A DNA stretch of 28,412 nt from a virus: the IMG/VR virus record IMGVR_UViG_3300014499_000024, positions 1 through 28,412 of that record, one strand, 5' to 3'. Below are positions 4,433-20,547 of the stretch, in pieces. The translations under genes and the position numbers were made by a program. The first letter of the stretch is position 1; the number at the start of each line of letters is the position of its first letter. The notes beneath the pieces were generated by a model. It was not told where the DNA came from and did not search any database. It saw only the letters and a list, made by a program, of their open reading frames with translations.

Positions 4433-7240
4433 TTATCCACTCTTACTAAGCAACTCTAACCTAGACCCTTCGGCGCTCTTAGTAACTCGCCATACTTCCG
4501 CAAAACTGCTGGAATTAAGCGAGCGGTGGTCGATCAACCAGATGGACTGTTGCGTGGTATTAGCACGAACCTGTAGGTATTCCAACAGCGCGTCTATGCC
4601 CTCCTGACTTAACCAATGCGTTGGTTCGTCGAAAGCGATCATATTCCATAGAGTGCCGGAAGTATGCTGAATCAAGGCAGCAAACCCGATAGCAACTGCT
4701 AGCCGGACCCGTTGCAACTCGCCAGGGCTCCACTCACGAGCGACTTCCTCGCCGGGCGATGTAACATTGATATATACTCCAGGTCGGTTACTTAGGCCTC
4801 CGGATTTGGTTTCTACCTCTGTTGTAAATCGGATGCCCCACCCAGAAAGCCCTAGCTGTTCTGCGATGTGGGCAGTTCCCATTTCAAGACTGTCCAGCAC
4901 TCGTCTAAGCTGGAACAGCCTTACGCGCTTGAAAGCTGTTTTCCACCATTCAGCGTGAATCAATTGCCCGCTGATTACAGCTTCTTGCTTTTTGGCTTTA
5001 TTTACGTCACTAGCTGCTTTACGCTTATAATTACGTAGATCATGCAATTGTTTAGTGTATGGGTTAGTAGTGTTCATAGCATTTTGGATTGCTTGCTCAA
5101 TCCGGTCCATTGCTTTCTGGTTAGCTGATATCGTGGCTTCCAGAGTTGCGATGTCATGCTGATATTGAGCTGCTTTTGTTTTTGCCGCATCACGGCGGTT
5201 TATTACCGTCTCCGCGGATACTCTAAGCTCCTGGCCTTTCTGATCAGCTTCTGTGATCAGCTGCTTTGTGTCATTCATCTTAGATGATAGATCATTTAAG
5301 CAGCTATCAGCGAAGTGCCCGCTGATCTTTTGTCGGCACACTGGACATATTTTGTTCGTCTTGTAGAACTCATGCGATCGACGGGCCTCAATAAGTTGAT
5401 TACTGAGGCTATTTGCTGTCGCATTGCACTCAGCAATCTGTTGATATACATCAACAACCGCCTGAAACAGAATATCACTGTTTGGCATACGACTTAAAGC
5501 TTTTTTGCTGACCTCGACGTCACGGGCGTTTTTTAGCGTTACCTGCTCTGTGATATCCAGTTCGTTTATTAGCTGGTCTACTATTGTTGTGTTATGATTA
5601 CTCCATGCGGTTTCTGCATCTAATAACGATTGCTCGTCGGCTAGTCCATCTAGGATGCCTTTAGCATAAGCCAGATCGTTCTTGGCCTCGACCAGATCAC
5701 GGTTTATCGATTGGACTATCTTGCCGGCTCTATCGGACGACTTGATCCATAAGCCTAAGTTAAGTACATCATCGAACAACAACCCACGATCAGGTACGCC
5801 CATGTCGAAGAAAGTAGGTACGCCTTGCCCAAATATCAGTGATTGTAGAGCTTGAGCCTTAGTTGTTTGTAACAGCTTATCAATCGCTGTCTGATCAACT
5901 AGCTCACCATCGATTGCAATACGCTCAGGCGGTCCTGACCTAAATAACTCGAAAGGAGTATCGTTGATTCGTATCCTAACCAGTACCTCGGCCTTGTCAT
6001 ACCCAACTGATACCAGCCGGGATGTACGAGCGCCGTGAATGGAGCATCCATAGAAGCACCAAAATATCGCATCGAATATTGAAGTCTTGCCGGCGCCGTT
6101 TGCACCTAGTGATGGCTCAACTTCATTAATACCGCCGATATACTTCAATCCACTGTTTTGCGACAGATTAATCACAGTAGGAGTTATGAAGCTTTTGAAG
6201 CATCGCAACTCGATTTGATCAATGTAAATATGGATCGCTGACGTCGCAGCAGCTTTATTGGTAGCATCACGATGCATCAAACTTTTACCAACCTTAATAA
6301 GCTGTTCGTCTATCCCTTCTGCTTTGGCGAATGCGTCCAGCACAACATCCGGGTCTGCCTCCAGCGATGGGACAGCATCATTATCCGACTGGGGTATCGG
6401 CACTACCGGCTCAACGGACGCCAGCACAATTCCTCGATCTGCTGCCCATGCTCGTACGTCGGCCTGGTTGATTGGCCACTCGTTGATCCTAGCACGATCT
6501 ATTGTAAATCTAACCCGTACCTGATCACCTGGCCTTAGGCTTTTGATATGCTTAAGCTGTTCCAGGTTATCTACCTCCAGGATCGCCTTTTGTATTGGTC
6601 TAAGTTTTATGGATCGGCTTATTTTGTAGGTACTAAGATCGACCTCCAGCAGTTGACATGCGTGAGTATCACCAAACTTTACCGGGTGAGGCGCTCCTAC
6701 ATAAGTAACATCACCTATTGCCTGAGGTACGTGCACATCACCGCTGTATATCCTGATACCACGAGGTATCGGCGGCATATTGTCACTATTAGCAAAGATG
6801 CCATTACCAAAGTCTGACCCACGTACGGTTTGATGCATCATAATGCATCGGTAGTTACGAAACGGAATCCCGGCCCAGTCCTTCTTAGGATCAATCGATG
6901 ACGGTAGCCACAGCATGTCTCCGTCTGCGTACGGATTACTTATGTAGTGGATACCATCGATCGCACTTAAGAACTCGAAGTACGATGGGCCATTGATTGC
7001 AGTATCGTGGTTGCCGCGAAGGATCGTGATTTCGCACTGGTTCCGCTTGATTAGTTTAATCAGCTCCCGCACAACCTGGTTCACAAAGCTAGCACTGTGG
7101 CGATCCTTACGATCTACCATATCACCAAGGATAGCGATCGGCATACTGTGGTAATAGCGATCCGACAGTACATCGAATATTTCCCAGCGATAGGTGTTCG
7201 CGGACGAGTCGTCTAAGTGCCAGTCACCAGTGATAATCAA
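4433..7240 (-). CDS. SbcD-SbcC (Mre11-Rad50) single-chain fusion nuclease
   Basis: 935 aa. Predicted DNA end-processing nuclease/ATPase in which the two subunits, normally separate (T4 gp47 and gp46), are one polypeptide. Residues 1 to about 200 are the Mre11/SbcD phosphoesterase: GDWHLD (5-10), ILGDMVDRKDRH (37-48), LRGNHD (74-79), MMHQ (134-137), SGDVHVPQ (166-173). A linker of about 100 residues follows. The Rad50/SbcC part starts near 337: Walker A GANGAGKT (379-386), zinc-hook CPVC (632-635) flanked by coiled coil, ABC signature EWSPGELQRV (836-845) and Walker B MIAFDEP (867-873), with H-loop-like LIDH (902-905). The coiled coil is short compared with cellular Rad50. The start is TTG with AGGAG 6 nt upstream, in TTGA overlap with the nuclease gene before it. 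Confidence 0.92.
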   Translation of the reverse strand: MIITGDWHLDDSSANTYRWEIFDVLSDRYYHSMPIAILGDMVDRKDRHSASFVNQVVRELIKLIKRNQCEITILRGNHDTAINGPSYFEFLSAIDGIHYISNPYADGDMLWLPSSIDPKKDWAGIPFRNYRCIMMHQTVRGSDFGNGIFANSDNMPPIPRGIRIYSGDVHVPQAIGDVTYVGAPHPVKFGDTHACQLLEVDLSTYKISRSIKLRPIQKAILEVDNLEQLKHIKSLRPGDQVRVRFTIDRARINEWPINQADVRAWAADRGIVLASVEPVVPIPQSDNDAVPSLEADPDVVLDAFAKAEGIDEQLIKVGKSLMHRDATNKAAATSAIHIYIDQIELRCFKSFITPTVINLSQNSGLKYIGGINEVEPSLGANGAGKTSIFDAIFWCFYGCSIHGARTSRLVSVGYDKAEVLVRIRINDTPFELFRSGPPERIAIDGELVDQTAIDKLLQTTKAQALQSLIFGQGVPTFFDMGVPDRGLLFDDVLNLGLWIKSSDRAGKIVQSINRDLVEAKNDLAYAKGILDGLADEQSLLDAETAWSNHNTTIVDQLINELDITEQVTLKNARDVEVSKKALSRMPNSDILFQAVVDVYQQIAECNATANSLSNQLIEARRSHEFYKTNKICPVCRQKISGHFADSCLNDLSSKMNDTKQLITEADQKGQELRVSAETVINRRDAAKTKAAQYQHDIATLEATISANQKAMDRIEQAIQNAMNTTNPYTKQLHDLRNYKRKAASDVNKAKKQEAVISGQLIHAEWWKTAFKRVRLFQLRRVLDSLEMGTAHIAEQLGLSGWGIRFTTEVETKSGGLSNRPGVYINVTSPGEEVAREWSPGELQRVRLAVAIGFAALIQHTSGTLWNMIAFDEPTHWLSQEGIDALLEYLQVRANTTQQSIWLIDHRSLNSSSFAEVWRVTKSAEGSRLELLSKSG

Positions 7241-11943: not shown

Positions 11944-13091
11944 TATGTAGCCTCGCGCCGACCTCTGTACTCGTTACGAAGGCGATCGGCCCTAGACATA
12001 GTAGGTGGGTCGCTAGGTTCTTCACGCGGAGACAATACGGCACGACGAGCTTGATAGCGCGACGGATCATTATCCTGCTGTTGGTTTCGTGGTGCTCCAC
12101 GACGTGGTGGTGGATCGTCATAAGGAGGCGGATCATCATCCTGCTGTTGGTTTCGTGGTGCTCCACGACGTGGTGGTGGATCGTCATAAGGAGGCGGATC
12201 ATCATCCTGCTGTTGGTTTCGTGGTGGTGGGCCGTCGCGCCGTGCTTCTCTCCCTGACCCTACGCGCGGTGTCGGTTCGTCTGGGTCGGGCCCCTGACTA
12301 GTAACCCGTCTTTGTTGCCCCCCACCGCGGCGTGTATCCGGTTCTTCAGGATCAGGATACCGGCGTGACGAGTCGGTGCTGCCACTATCATCACTACGTC
12401 TATCACTACCACGTGCTGTATTATCAGGAGGAGCACCTTCATACAACTCCAGTGCTTCTTCGTATGACAGATATTGGAGTAATGAAGGCAGCGGGTTATC
12501 GACCGCAAAGTCTATCAGTTTTGGGTCGACTGATGTTGCCTTGCGGGACAAATTCACTCCAACGTATTTGCGTTGTTGATTCTCTCCCTCCGTAATAAAA
12601 CTTATGTTGTACCCCCTTTCCGGGTCATCCACTGCGTAAATCTCACCAGAGTCCGGGTCCTCTGCATGCTTAGCAATGTCGCTATCCAATGTATGCGGCA
12701 TTGCCCAAAGTTGAGGTCCTTTTTCTTCTTCTTTTTTGTCGATCAGCCAGACTAGGACCCGACGTCTGGCAATGAGCGCTTTCTTCTCGGCTTCTTGCCC
12801 GGCCCGGTCAAACTCATTGACCGCTTCGCAACAAGGGCATGGTTTGTTCAGCATTCGCTTCATGCACAGGCAGCTCTTGCGATCCGGCCCTAAGCCGTAA
12901 TGCACCCATACATCAAGTCCGAAGTGGTGCGCGTTATCCCAGGTCGGCGGGAAGATACGAATGTAATTATCCCCTTTCCTGACCTGGTAAATCGCTAAAT
13001 CGCCAGGAAGGAACCCCTCACCACGGTTTTGAGCTGCGCGCTTGCGCCACTCGTTAGGGTCACGCTGTTGGTAGGTGAATCGCTTAGCCAT
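11943..13091 (-). CDS. gp32-like single-stranded DNA-binding protein
   Basis: 382 aa from the ATG MAKRFTYQQR. A longer frame from a TTG at 13130 has no better SD. Probably coats ssDNA at forks and recombination sites. The zinc-site pattern resembles T4 gp32: VWVHYG (H64), C76, then CPCC with C85 and C88. The core runs to about residue 240. The last 140 residues are low complexity, rich in Pro, Asp, Gln and Arg, with a 22-residue repeat (DDDPPPYDDPPPRRGAPRNQ...) encoded by a 66-bp DNA repeat. Unlike gp32 or SSB, the extreme C-terminus is basic (RLRNEYRGRREAT), not acidic. It lies directly before the recombinase (TAATG), and its GGAG SD (about 11 nt) falls in the end of the small membrane-protein gene upstream. 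Confidence 0.8.
   Translation of the reverse strand: MAKRFTYQQRDPNEWRKRAAQNRGEGFLPGDLAIYQVRKGDNYIRIFPPTWDNAHHFGLDVWVHYGLGPDRKSCLCMKRMLNKPCPCCEAVNEFDRAGQEAEKKALIARRRVLVWLIDKKEEEKGPQLWAMPHTLDSDIAKHAEDPDSGEIYAVDDPERGYNISFITEGENQQRKYVGVNLSRKATSVDPKLIDFAVDNPLPSLLQYLSYEEALELYEGAPPDNTARGSDRRSDDSGSTDSSRRYPDPEEPDTRRGGGQQRRVTSQGPDPDEPTPRVGSGREARRDGPPPRNQQQDDDPPPYDDPPPRRGAPRNQQQDDDPPPYDDPPPRRGAPRNQQQDNDPSRYQARRAVLSPREEPSDPPTMSRADRLRNEYRGRREAT
12074..12228. repeat. 66-bp tandem repeat inside the ssDNA-binding gene
   Basis: Two essentially identical 66-bp copies (12074-12139, 12140-12205) and a 23-bp partial third start with CCTGCTGTTGGTTTCGTGGT on the plus strand. In the gene each unit encodes 22 residues of the disordered Asp/Pro/Gln tail. 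Near identity at DNA level points to recent duplication, so copy number may vary between isolates. Confidence 0.9.
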
Positions 13092-17625: not shown

Positions 17626-18696
17626 TTATCCTTGTACTCCCGAGATGTAGTAGCAGAACGGCTGTTTTTTGCTGCACAGAACAATGATGTGCTGGTTGAT
17701 GTAGTCTAGTACGATGCTATCAGTACTTTTCAACGCTCTAGCCAGCTTGCCGGCGTTTAAGCTGATAGGACTTAGTTTTGGGATTTTGTACTGCTTGTCT
17801 AGCAGGTGGTACTCTTCGGAGTCGGCTGTGTCCTCAGCAAACTTCAATATAATCTTGCCTGACTCCACGCTTAGGATAACCCGCGCGAAGTTAGCAACCG
17901 CTGCCATGGCTTCTACTCGACTGACAAATGTCCGGATTATAGCCTGCGGCAGTGGGACCATAAGCTTACGGGTTTGGTATTTATCGATGATGTCCTTAGT
18001 GTCTTTCAACTTAGGAGCTGTGCATGTTACTACTATCAGTTTGGTGTTGGTGTCATGGTAGTACATACCAGATTCATCGATATCCAGACTACCCTGGCCC
18101 GGCTGGATTACCTGACTCATCAACGATATAGAGTCTGGTGAGAATGTTAGCGGAGGGGATGCGCTTCCTGTCATTATACCATCAAATCGGTACTCTGATA
18201 AGGTGCTGCCATCAGTAGATACGACAGATGCGTTTTTGCTAAGATCAATCGATACGCCATACATACCTGTTGCAGCTAACGCTCTATCGTCACATGATAT
18301 AGACCCCAGTTTCAGTGCTTCCACGAAGTCTGTGGTGGTTTTCCATGATCTTTGCATACGTCTCCCTATCTTAGGGATATCACCTTCAGCGAGCGGGATA
18401 GTAGCCAATCGACCGCTTGCAGTACCGCATTTCCAGGTAACAGTGGTATCACCGGACACTAACTCAACCGGTTGATTTGATGTCATAGAGTTAACTAAGG
18501 CAATAAACACGGTACCATTAACGCAGCAAACTTGATTGATCGGGAGCGGCACCTTACGCTCCATAATACCGAACACAGAACAACCCCTGATTCCAACTGG
18601 AGATAGCTCAATGCATCGATAAGGCATAGCTATCGCCTTAGCACTTACTAGCTTGCTGAAGGCGCTTAGTACTGACGATAATTCTTGACTATTCAT
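17626..18696 (-). CDS. DnaN-like sliding clamp (putative)
   Basis: 356 aa. Length and pattern of alternating strands and helices suit a beta-type processivity clamp, and it is followed 16 nt later by the polymerase gene. Recognisable features are weak: three repeating alpha/beta blocks, IDLSKNASVVSTDGSTLSEY near the middle (similar to the VATDGHRLA region of DnaN) and a C-terminal YYISGV, where bacterial clamps end near MPM/MRL-type sequence. No nuclease or ATPase motif is visible. Together with the clamp loader, a sliding clamp is the expected missing component, so context supports the call. Start ATG AAT AGT has AGGA 9 nt upstream, with promoter element P5 30 nt upstream. Confidence 0.55.
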   Translation of the reverse strand: MNSQELSSVLSAFSKLVSAKAIAMPYRCIELSPVGIRGCSVFGIMERKVPLPINQVCCVNGTVFIALVNSMTSNQPVELVSGDTTVTWKCGTASGRLATIPLAEGDIPKIGRRMQRSWKTTTDFVEALKLGSISCDDRALAATGMYGVSIDLSKNASVVSTDGSTLSEYRFDGIMTGSASPPLTFSPDSISLMSQVIQPGQGSLDIDESGMYYHDTNTKLIVVTCTAPKLKDTKDIIDKYQTRKLMVPLPQAIIRTFVSRVEAMAAVANFARVILSVESGKIILKFAEDTADSEEYHLLDKQYKIPKLSPISLNAGKLARALKSTDSIVLDYINQHIIVLCSKKQPFCYYISGVQG

Positions 18697-18747: not shown

Positions 18748-18840
18748 TGGTGGCGGCGGTGAGGTTCGAACTCACAAGCTCCTTTGGGGAACCCCTTAAC
18801 TTCATAGGATAAGTGTATCTGCCATTTCTACTACGCCGCT
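18748..18840 (-). tRNA. tRNA with long variable arm, apparent anticodon AUG (His?)
   Basis: Cloverleaf by eye: acceptor AGCGGCG/CGCCGCC (A1 against C72 is a mismatch, other six pairs perfect), D stem GTA/TAC with GAAATGGCAGA loop, anticodon stem CTTATC/GTTAAG (six pairs with one T-T mismatch), loop CTATGAA, variable arm GGTTCC-CCAAA-GGAGCT, T arm GTGAG-TTCGAAC-CTCAC, then A73 and encoded CCA. The anticodon would be AUG, reading the His codon CAU. The D-loop and long variable arm resemble Leu/Ser-type (type II) tRNAs, and the 6-bp anticodon stem is one pair longer than normal. An alternative 4-bp stem with an 8-nt loop would expose CCU. It lies 3 nt after the other tRNA; the two share the same architecture. 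Charging identity is uncertain. Confidence 0.7.
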
Positions 18841-18843
18841 CAC

Positions 18844-18935
18844 TGGTAAGGGTGACGGGACTCGAACCCGTAGATTCCTTTAGGGAACCCCGCAGATTTG
18901 CAGTCTGCGCGCGTCTACCATTCCGCTACACCCTC
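18844..18935 (-). tRNA. tRNA with long variable arm, anticodon GCA (Cys?)
   Basis: Cloverleaf by eye: acceptor GAGGGTG/CACCCTT (one G-U pair), D stem GCG/CGC with GAATGGTAGA loop, anticodon stem CGCAGA/TCTGCG (6 bp), loop CTGCAAA with anticodon GCA (Cys codons UGU/UGC), variable arm GGTTCC-CTAAA-GGAATC, T arm ACGGG-TTCGAGT-CCCGT, A73 and encoded CCA. Ordinary tRNA-Cys has a short variable loop, so a type II body with a GCA anticodon is unusual. The anticodon arm equals that of bacterial tRNA-Tyr apart from GUA to GCA, while the D arm looks Leu-like. The amino acid actually attached is therefore open. Promoter element P6 ends 9 nt before G1. Confidence 0.82.
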
Positions 18936-18943
18936 ATACTAAT

Positions 18944-18953
18944 ATTATATACC
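18944..18953 (-). promoter_or_regulatory. TATATA-type promoter element P6 (tRNA promoter)
   Basis: The minus strand reads GGTATATAAT, an exact consensus match. Its GGT ATA TAA supplies the last Gly-Ile-stop codons of the 209-aa gene. G1 of the first tRNA follows after 8 nt, the spacing expected between a -10 element and the transcription start. This is the best evidence that the repeated element works as a promoter. Confidence 0.7.
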
Positions 18954-19574
18954 GGCCTTCATTTCCGAGGAGGCTTTCCTAAACCTAGGTAGTGATGCAG
19001 CGTTGTGCTTTCGGAGATCATTACGATCCAACGCAGCTTGTTTTTTTACCATCAGTCGGCCCGGAAGCCCTTTGGTCGGTGGCTTGTACCCAGCAACTAT
19101 TACAGCCGGAATATCTTCATCAAGTATCCATTGACCTAGCTGTATCTTGATACTTTCTCCACCTCCGAGAAGAGCGACCGCCTCATCAGTTGTGATATAC
19201 CCTTGTGGCCGATCCGCAACTGTGTAACAGACGTCACTTGCCGTCCGGTACTTTCTCTTATGCTTTATGGTCCGCGACTGTGTGTTGGCTCCAACCTGAC
19301 GGGCCGGTTTATCTACAACAGGCACAGCAACAGGCGCAGCAGCAGGCACATCAACAGGCACATCAACAGGCGCGGCAGCAGGCACGGGATCAGGATTGAT
19401 GGGGATTGGGGGCGGCGGTGGGGACGGTGCTTGCTGGACCGTACCAGCATCATCGGGGCGTCGGATTAGCCCCTCTCTCGCCAGTACTCTGAACGCGCGC
19501 ACTATCGCGCGCATGAAGGTGTCCTCGAGTGATTTGAAATCATCTTCGCTAAGTAACTTCATGTCTATTTGCAT
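18945..19574 (-). CDS. Pro/Ala-rich linker protein, unknown
   Basis: 209 aa, not recognised. The N-terminal 40 residues are helical (FKSLEDTFMRAIVRAFRVLA). A low-complexity linker of Pro, Ala, Val and Asp (about 45-90, with repeated DVPVDVPAAAPVAVPV units built on a 12-bp DNA repeat near 19310-19390) follows. The C-terminal half is a compact domain (ASDVCYTVADRPQGYITTDE...IQLGQWILDEDIPAVI) whose TTDEAVALLGGG segment could be a MerR/excisionase-like DNA-binding helix pair. That is only a suggestion. Basic tail. SD GAGGGG is 6 nt before the ATG, and promoter element P7 is 27 nt upstream. The stop codon is part of promoter element P6. Confidence 0.75.
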   Translation of the reverse strand: MQIDMKLLSEDDFKSLEDTFMRAIVRAFRVLAREGLIRRPDDAGTVQQAPSPPPPPIPINPDPVPAAAPVDVPVDVPAAAPVAVPVVDKPARQVGANTQSRTIKHKRKYRTASDVCYTVADRPQGYITTDEAVALLGGGESIKIQLGQWILDEDIPAVIVAGYKPPTKGLPGRLMVKKQAALDRNDLRKHNAASLPRFRKASSEMKAGI

Positions 19575-19711: not shown

Positions 19712-20497
19712 TTAGTTCTTCCAGTGGCCTGCTTCCTTCACCGCGTTGATAGTTGATGTCACCCAGTAGCGGGCAGTTCTGGCCGTTGACTGGTTCATCT
19801 CAAAACCCTCGCCCGAGAGGTAAGTAATCATTTCCTCGAACGTGGCTTTGGGATCGTCGATCAAGAAAGAGCGAAGCGCGCCGATTGCCGAGTCACTCGA
19901 CGGTTGAGCAGGCGCGACTTGCTTTCGTGCCGGTGCAGCCGGTGCAGCTCTCGCTGTCGCTTTGGCCGGTGCGGCCGGTGTAGCTCTCGCTGTAGTTTTG
20001 GCCGGTGCGGCCGGTGCAGCTCTCGCTGTAGTTTTGGCCGGTGCAGCTTTGGCCGGTGCGGCCGGTGTAGCTCTCGCTGTAGTTTTGGCTCTCGCTGTAG
20101 CTTTCGGTGCTTCCTCCGGGTCTTCCTCCGGGTCTTCATCCAGTATTTCATCATCCGGTTCCGGTTCCGGATCAGGCTTGGCGACAGCGGGGCGTCGCTT
20201 ACCTTTTGCTGGGGGCGCCGGGTCCGGCTCGACTCCATCAAGCGGCAACGCAGCTTTTTCGGCTGCGACCAGCTCCAGGCTGTCGTTGTACCAGGTTTGG
20301 GCTTCGTCACTCAGGACGTCCCATGCTTCACTCGGTATCTCGCCGACCGCTTTGTGTATGCGGGCGAGGTAATCGTTCGCAGACTCGTCAGGCTCCCGAT
20401 CAGGAAACTCAGTATGCTCCTGCACTGACGCCAGCAGCTCGTCATGGAGCGTGCTGATATCCTCCGGCTCTGGTGCCGGTGCGGCTTTTCTGGCCAT
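19712..20497 (-). CDS. Ala/Lys/Pro-rich putative DNA-binding protein
   Basis: 261 aa from ATG GCC AGA (SD AAGGA, 8 nt; a frame from 20530 lacks one). Three parts: an N-terminal helical domain (about 15-85, TLHDELLASVQEHTEFPDRE... WDVLSDEAQTWYND); a long low-complexity middle with acidic Asp/Glu/Pro runs then AKTTARAAPAAP-type repeats (12 residues, 36 bp) like histone-H1 tails; and a C-terminal 60-residue domain (IGALRSFLIDDPKATFEEMI... MNQSTARTARYWVTSTINAV) that looks like a winged or simple helix-turn-helix. The basic Ala/Pro/Lys tail suggests nucleic-acid binding, perhaps nucleoid-like. Single-gene unit: promoter element P8 upstream, intrinsic terminator downstream, consistent with high separate expression. 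Function is inference. Confidence 0.72.
   Translation of the reverse strand: MARKAAPAPEPEDISTLHDELLASVQEHTEFPDREPDESANDYLARIHKAVGEIPSEAWDVLSDEAQTWYNDSLELVAAEKAALPLDGVEPDPAPPAKGKRRPAVAKPDPEPEPDDEILDEDPEEDPEEAPKATARAKTTARATPAAPAKAAPAKTTARAAPAAPAKTTARATPAAPAKATARAAPAAPARKQVAPAQPSSDSAIGALRSFLIDDPKATFEEMITYLSGEGFEMNQSTARTARYWVTSTINAVKEAGHWKN
19931..20107. repeat. 36-bp imperfect tandem repeat in the Ala/Lys-rich gene
   Basis: About five imperfect copies, each containing CTCTCGCTGTAGTTTTGGCC on the plus strand, encode the TTARAAPAAPAK-like units of the protein. Copies differ at a few bases and some are shortened, suggesting repeated slippage or unequal recombination. Confidence 0.8.
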
Positions 20498-20547
20498 TGA
20501 TGCGATCCTTGTTGTTGCCCCCATAAGCACTATTGCCTGGGCAACGG

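What the first reader, a model, noticed from the sequence alone, without database searches (positions are those of the whole stretch)
18748..18935. Tandem pair of type II tRNAs with 6-bp anticodon stems and anticodons GCA and AUG
Both tRNAs share a non-standard plan: 7-bp acceptor, 3-bp D stem, 6-bp anticodon stem, 6-bp variable arm with 5-nt loop, 5-bp T stem and encoded CCA. Long variable arms belong to Leu, Ser, Tyr and Sec tRNAs, yet the anticodons read Cys (GCA) and His (AUG). AUG with A at position 34 is rare for His. One has an A1-C72 mismatch and a T-T pair in the anticodon stem. They may be mischarged decoders, a Leu- or Ser-accepting tRNA reading foreign codons, or decoys for host tRNA-cleaving defences.
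Basis: partly seen in the sequence, partly recalled or inferred. Interest (0 to 1): 0.72.

Follow-up and report, generated by a model that had tools for sequence, protein, structure and literature searches.

The report
Phage transfer RNAs with mismatched anticodons
A phage carries two genuine but oddly built transfer RNAs that look like leucine carriers yet would read cysteine and histidine codons; they belong to a tiny, previously unseen phage family that sits beside the same gene in another phage group, and what they do during infection is not known.

Summary
Two tRNA genes lie on the minus strand at 18935-18844 (anticodon GCA) and 18840-18748 (anticodon AUG), with a 7/3/6/V-arm/5 plan and encoded CCA. 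None appears in 100 shuffles. Relatives exist in two other viral contigs (L178, L181; anticodon GUG). They have the same 6-bp anticodon stem and the same variable arm, and also sit directly 3' of a homologue of the window gene 18945-19574. Across the family 15 of 28 pairs change on both sides and 98.6% of cells pair, so the fold is under selection. The extra anticodon-stem pair sets this family apart from the 88 other Leu-D-arm tRNAs measured. The tRNA pattern is absent from 84,980 species genomes.

Identity: both window tRNAs have A73, A20a and a large variable arm, the bacterial Leu determinants. They lack the bacterial Cys (U73) and His (G-1:C73) determinants. Phage recoding is not supported, because an aligned catalytic RNR cysteine is a TGC codon. 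Best reading: leucine-accepting (missense) tRNAs, resembling allo-tRNAs but 7/5. Rivals: alpha-proteobacterial-type His tRNAs, anti-nuclease decoys, decaying tRNAs. Charging and function are untested.

The parts
18844..18935 (-). Type II tRNA, anticodon GCA, G1.U72, A73, encoded CCA, 6-bp anticodon stem
   Evidence: ARAGORN; RF00005 51.0 bits; MFE fold is the cloverleaf
18748..18840 (-). Type II tRNA, anticodon AUG, A1.C72, U.U in the anticodon stem, A73, encoded CCA, 6-bp anticodon stem
   Evidence: ARAGORN; RF00005 32.8 bits; covariation
18945..19574 (-). Gene of 209 aa directly 5' of the tRNA pair; C-terminal winged-helix/Xis-like domain; the homologue in L178/L181 also directly precedes a tRNA of the same family
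   Evidence: tblastn 46% over 107 aa; alignment A1; model and fold search (weak)
17626..18696 (-). DNA polymerase processivity factor (beta clamp), the gene downstream of the tRNA pair; in Vibrio and Edwardsiella relatives this neighbourhood has no tRNA
   Evidence: PHROG 947

Best explanation
Shown: two real type II tRNA genes form, with one tRNA in two other related viral contigs, a small phage tRNA family with a 7/5 acceptor-T branch, a 6-bp anticodon stem and a 7-bp variable arm closed by a CYAAA loop, placed directly 3' of a shared gene. Inferred: they are transcribed with that gene, cut out by the host tRNA-processing enzymes (CCA is encoded) and, in the window phage, charged with leucine by the host LeuRS, which does not read the anticodon. 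They would then be missense tRNAs able to place Leu at UGY (Cys) and CAU (His) codons. As the phage's own TGC and CAT codons are ordinary and TGC encodes an aligned catalytic Cys, such decoding must be weak, conditional, or aimed at host translation rather than a recoding of phage genes.
For: Covariation: 15 of 28 pairs changed on both sides, 98.6% of cells paired; 0 of 500 shuffles reach either value, and slid registers fall to 42-50%. The sixth anticodon-stem pair itself covaries (CG to GU). The shared spacing of 7 nt between D stem and anticodon loop separates the family from 88 other Leu-D-arm tRNAs with 6. Conserved gene-tRNA linkage in viruses that otherwise share only two further weakly similar genes with the window, as far as searched. 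Bacterial Leu determinants are A73, A20a, a large variable region and no anticodon element; Cys needs U73 and His needs G-1, C73 (PMC9976931). Phage tRNAs in the fetched loci follow this (Cys 7 of 7 short ones U73, Leu 36 of 37 A73). Profile of the GCA tRNA: Leu 30.0, Ser 17.8, Tyr 14.6, with cross-validation 52 of 53 Leu correct.
Against: The AUG tRNA body is not classified as Leu (Ser 12.9, Leu 7.6) and carries two mismatches. The Leu-type D arm also occurs in phage His, Gln and Asn tRNAs with their own identity elements, so body similarity is not proof of charging. L178/L181 have G73, which blocks LeuRS in E. coli, so the family would not share one amino acid. Missense insertion would also harm the phage. 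Nematode type II tRNAs with foreign anticodons are leucylated in vitro, yet no mistranslation was found in vivo (PMC4300185).
Confidence: 0.45

Rival explanations
1. They are histidine tRNAs of the alpha-proteobacterial kind, in which HisRS reads G1:U72 and A73 without G-1. The AUG and GUG members would be cognate His decoders and the GCA member a His-accepting oddity.
For: That identity set is documented (PMC9976931; PMC7590224, where one such HisRS charged variants through G1:U72 and A73 rather than the GUG anticodon). The GCA tRNA has G1.U72 and A73. The AUG tRNA has A73 and A1.C72, a pair isosteric with G.U. Two of the three distinct tRNAs carry His anticodons and share acceptor pairs 2-6 (alignment). 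The integrase of L178 is closest to alpha-proteobacterial plasmid copies, at 37-40% identity.
Against: L178/L181 have G73. The host of the window phage is unknown; its nearest named relatives infect Vibrio and Edwardsiella, gammaproteobacteria that should use canonical G-1:C73 (own knowledge). G1.U72 is also common in phage Leu tRNAs (11 of 37). A large variable arm is not a His feature.
Confidence: 0.17
2. They are counter-defence RNAs: decoys or nuclease-resistant stand-ins for host tRNAs cut by anticodon nucleases, with translation secondary.
For: Phage tRNAs can rescue phages from tRNA-cutting defences and show anticodon-loop changes (PMC10264068, PMC11555353). The anticodon arm of the GCA tRNA equals that of Tyr tRNAs in two phage loci except at position 35. 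Anticodon loops of another tRNA in L178/L181's genomes differ sharply in conserved surroundings.
Against: In the retron-Eco7 case changing the anticodon abolished rescue. Outside the anticodon the Tyr-like arm is also found in a Leu tRNA, and the loop is a common Cys loop. No nuclease partner is known.
Confidence: 0.2
3. They are former tRNAs (Leu- or Tyr-like) drifting after loss of need, the AUG copy being half decayed.
For: Mismatches and the lower score of the AUG tRNA; a D-loop variant (GG to GA) at 18918 in a contig 99.95% identical.
Against: Seven pairs in the AUG tRNA carry their own double changes and still pair, against two broken. Encoded CCA, T loop, G18G19 and U33 are intact in both. 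The linkage is kept in two phage groups.
Confidence: 0.13

Closest known systems
allo-tRNAs (Mukai et al. 2017, as reviewed in PMC7609411)
   Same: Long variable arm, lengthened anticodon stem, anticodons that do not match the predicted amino acid.
   Different: Allo-tRNAs have 8/4 or 9/3 acceptor-T branches and mostly Ser identity. These are strictly 7/5 (the 49-65 pair covaries; U8 cannot pair with 65) and the window pair has A73.
Bacterial tRNA-Leu
   Same: D arm GCGGAA..GGTAGACGC (GCA member), A20a, A73, large variable arm.
   Different: Anticodons GCA and AUG; one extra pair in the anticodon stem.
Nematode nev-tRNAs (PMC4300185)
   Same: Type II tRNAs with foreign anticodons, leucylated in vitro, CCA-mature.
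   Different: Eukaryotic, other anticodons (CCC, UAU); no 6-bp anticodon stem described in what I read.
selC* tRNA-Cys
   Same: Long variable arm and GCA anticodon.
   Different: selC* has U73 and a modified 8/4 branch; here A73 and 7/5.
Alpha-proteobacterial tRNA-His without G-1
   Same: G1:U72 (GCA and GUG members), A73 (window pair), His anticodon (AUG, GUG members).
   Different: Large variable arm, 6-bp stem, no single member has all three elements.

Membership tests
Bacterial tRNA-Cys | U73 discriminator with GCA anticodon | tested here: not met
   GCA present but A73; all 7 CCA-ended short phage Cys tRNAs have U73; rule in PMC9976931
Canonical bacterial tRNA-His | G-1 paired to C73, GUG anticodon | tested here: not met
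   AUG tRNA has A73 and A34; base -1 is G but faces A73
Bacterial tRNA-Leu | A73, A20a and large variable region | tested here: met
   Sequence; rule
Bacterial tRNA-Leu | Leu anticodon (NAG or NAA) | tested here: not met
   GCA and AUG
Bacterial tRNA-Leu | Charged by LeuRS | not testable with these tools
   Needs aminoacylation assay
allo-tRNA | 8/4 or 9/3 acceptor-T branch | tested here: not met
   Pair 49-65 is standard in all five rows with double changes (GC 3, AU 2), so T stem is 5 bp; U8 faces U or C at 65
allo-tRNA | Long variable arm, long anticodon stem, non-cognate anticodon | tested here: met
allo-tRNA | Ser identity (G73) | tested here: not met
   A73 in the window pair; G73 only in L178/L181
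Alpha-proteobacterial tRNA-His | G1:U72, A73 and GUG anticodon | tested here: inconclusive
   GCA: G1.U72, A73, wrong anticodon. AUG: A1.C72, A73, U35 G36. L178: G1.U72, G73, GUG. Host unknown
Anti-defence phage tRNA | Protects against a tRNA-cutting defence | not testable with these tools
   No partner known; needs plaque assays

The most novel reading that the evidence does not exclude
A phage-borne class of 7/5 missense tRNAs, charged by the anticodon-blind synthetases LeuRS (window pair) and SerRS (L178/L181) and carried as a unit with a winged-helix gene, that deliberately misreads Cys and His codons during infection.
Probability: 0.2. Interest if true: 0.82.

Novelty: new variant of a known kind. 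Interest (0 to 1): 0.52.

Why it matters
Phage tRNAs are usually explained by codon supply or by replacing tRNAs cut by host defences. A conserved family whose anticodon and acceptor identity disagree fits neither simply. It is small enough to test directly: three transcripts, a handful of synthetases, one reporter.

Tried and rejected
Recoding of UGC or CAU in the phage: codon use is ordinary (TGC 67, TGT 76, CAT 114, CAC 90), RNR Cys98 (TGC) aligns with a conserved cysteine of class II RNR and Mre11-like metal motifs use His codons of both kinds. Alternative cloverleaf with another anticodon: none. 8/4 allo-tRNA fold: U8 cannot pair with 65. Phage-encoded synthetase: no aaRS among the window genes scanned. 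Known defence genes nearby: none in PADLOC for eight unknown genes. Tyr origin of the GCA anticodon arm: suggestive but also shared by a Leu tRNA. More family members: the scans found only L178 and L181 beyond the window's near-identical contig; genome scans for the gene and the tRNA found none; P0001 and P0002 had no match in phage records and P0002 none in plasmids. Single-strand energy alone does not support the AUG tRNA (z -0.82), so covariation was used instead. Host assignment failed. DOIs I tried for the original allo-tRNA paper are not held.

Full report
What is there. The window is a 28.4-kb viral record from IMG/VR, a fragment of a tailed-phage genome. It carries a replication module: helicases, Mre11/Rad50-like proteins, a class II-like RNR, recombinase, SSB, clamp loader, family A polymerase, beta clamp, primase and methyltransferase. 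Its nearest named relatives are Vibrio phages of 75-79 kb (Mardecavirus for the one looked up) and the 71-kb Edwardsiella phage ZHS, at 27-38% protein identity. The two tRNA genes lie on the minus strand between an unknown gene (18945-19574) and the beta clamp gene. The corresponding neighbourhood in Edwardsiella phage ZHS and Vibrio phage VP06 has no tRNA.

The observation. The plan is as described, except that the variable arm is 7 bp. The anticodon loop is a normal 7-nt loop in both, so the anticodons GCA and AUG stand whether the stem is counted as 5 or 6 bp.

Relatives. A near-identical contig (IMGVR_UViG_3300014492_000107, 7 differences in 14.3 kb) carries the same pair with one change in the D loop of the GCA tRNA. 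Viral scans for the D arm plus variable-arm signature found L178 and L181, 90-96% identical to each other over the aligned stretches, each with one 93-nt type II tRNA with anticodon GUG. The three distinct tRNAs are 60-68% identical. They share the 2-nt step between D stem and 5-bp stem that makes the sixth pair, the 7-bp variable arm and its CYAAA loop. Among Leu-D-arm tRNAs in all fetched loci the spacing is 6 nt in 88 cases and 7 only in this family. The pattern is absent from one genome each of 84,980 species.

Linkage. In L178 and L181 the tRNA starts within the last codons of a gene whose C-terminal domain is 46% identical over 107 aa to the window gene that ends 9 bases before the GCA tRNA. 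A low-confidence model and weak Foldseek matches (best: a mycobacteriophage Xis, E 0.55) suggest a winged-helix domain. Only two other window genes have counterparts in the 60 kb of L178's genome that I fetched. The same gene next to the same kind of tRNA in otherwise dissimilar phages argues that the two travel or work together. This rests on two phage groups.

Evidence for selection on the fold. On the five-row alignment 98.6% of cells pair and 15 of 28 pairs change on both sides; no shuffle matches this, and slid registers fall to 42-50%. The sixth anticodon-stem pair and the 49-65 pair of the T stem both covary, which fixes a 6-bp anticodon stem and a 7/5 branch. Rows are few and related, so this supports the fold, not any function.

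Which amino acid. Bacterial Cys identity needs U73, His needs G-1 and C73, Leu needs A73 with A20a and a large variable region and no anticodon element, Ser prefers G73 (PMC9976931). Phage tRNAs in the fetched loci mostly follow these rules. The window pair therefore fits Leu and fails Cys and canonical His; the discriminator of L178/L181 fits Ser better. Sequence profiles with the anticodon masked give Leu for the GCA tRNA and for L178/L181, and no clear answer for the AUG tRNA. A caution: the Leu-type D arm also occurs in phage His, Gln and Asn tRNAs that carry their own identity bases. A second reading is open: some alpha-proteobacteria recognise tRNA-His by G1:U72 and A73 without G-1. The GCA tRNA has both, and the AUG tRNA has A73 with an A1.C72 pair that is isosteric with G.U (established structural knowledge, not tested here).

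How it may work. The step from leucine charging to misreading of Cys and His codons is inference. It cannot be a wholesale recoding of the phage, because TGC and CAT are used normally and RNR Cys98, aligned to a conserved cysteine of the B12-dependent enzyme, is a TGC codon. Weak or conditional misreading, effects on host translation, or a non-translational role as nuclease bait remain. Phage tRNAs do protect against tRNA-cutting defences (PMC11555353; proposed more widely in PMC10264068), but in the tested retron case an altered anticodon lost protection. Nematode nev-tRNAs show that leucylated foreign-anticodon tRNAs can persist without detectable mistranslation (PMC4300185).

Novelty. The nearest known kind is the allo-tRNA: long variable arm, long anticodon stem, mismatched anticodon (PMC7609411). 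Its defining 8/4 or 9/3 branch was tested and is not met, so this is not filed as an allo-tRNA; it is a new variant of phage type II tRNA with mismatched anticodon. Such tRNAs in general are not rare in phages: the loci fetched here include Leu-bodied ones with Pro, Gly, Ala, Trp, Arg and stop anticodons. That lowers the surprise of the mismatch itself and leaves the extra pair, the shared plan and the gene linkage as the new points.

Noticed in passing
L072:4863-4949, L174:2764-2848, L083:2939-3027, L161:6484-6567, L111:173-258, L170:1719-1806, L082:8377-8461, L162:2145-2232, L168:12347-12434: Many viral contigs carry Leu-bodied type II tRNAs, most with visible A73, whose anticodons read Pro, Gly, Ala, Trp or stop codons.
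   Followed up: partly
L165:7314-7398, L171:2078-2166, L142:1316-1404, L169:2543-2632: Type II tRNAs with Asn anticodon GUU and the proper Asn discriminator G73; in phages a long variable arm does not imply Leu, Ser or Tyr identity.
   Followed up: partly
L183:1498-1571 versus L182:1501-1574 (genomes of L178 and L181): In two phages that are about 94-98% identical here, the anticodon loop of a short tRNA differs at several bases (UGU versus UAA anticodon) while its flanks are nearly unchanged; a second tRNA differs at the wobble base.
   Followed up: partly
window 12047-12244: A 66-bp tandem repeat inside the SSB-like gene; the near-identical contig 3300014492_000107 appears to hold one more copy.
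   Followed up: no
window 19916-20107: Imperfect direct repeats (51-nt copies, spacing 18-51) inside the unknown gene 19712-20530.
   Followed up: no
window 18918: One of only 7 differences to the near-identical contig lies in the GCA tRNA D loop and turns GG into GA, the G19 that normally pairs with C56.
   Followed up: partly
L064, L067, L084, L085, L100, L101: Leu tRNA 5' halves interrupted after the anticodon loop, as expected of introns in phage tRNA-Leu genes; in L084 Rfam fits one tRNA over 129 bases.
   Followed up: no
L063, L081, L103, L107, L114, L116, L138, L147, L179: A recurrent element with a Leu-like D arm (GTGGCGGAATAGGTAGACGC) and a 3' part GGTGCAAATCC, in viral contigs; Rfam names nothing at it in the five of these contigs scanned (L103, L114, L138, L147, L179). 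L147 also carries a ROOL RNA at 5973-6569; whether it overlaps the element was not checked.
   Followed up: no
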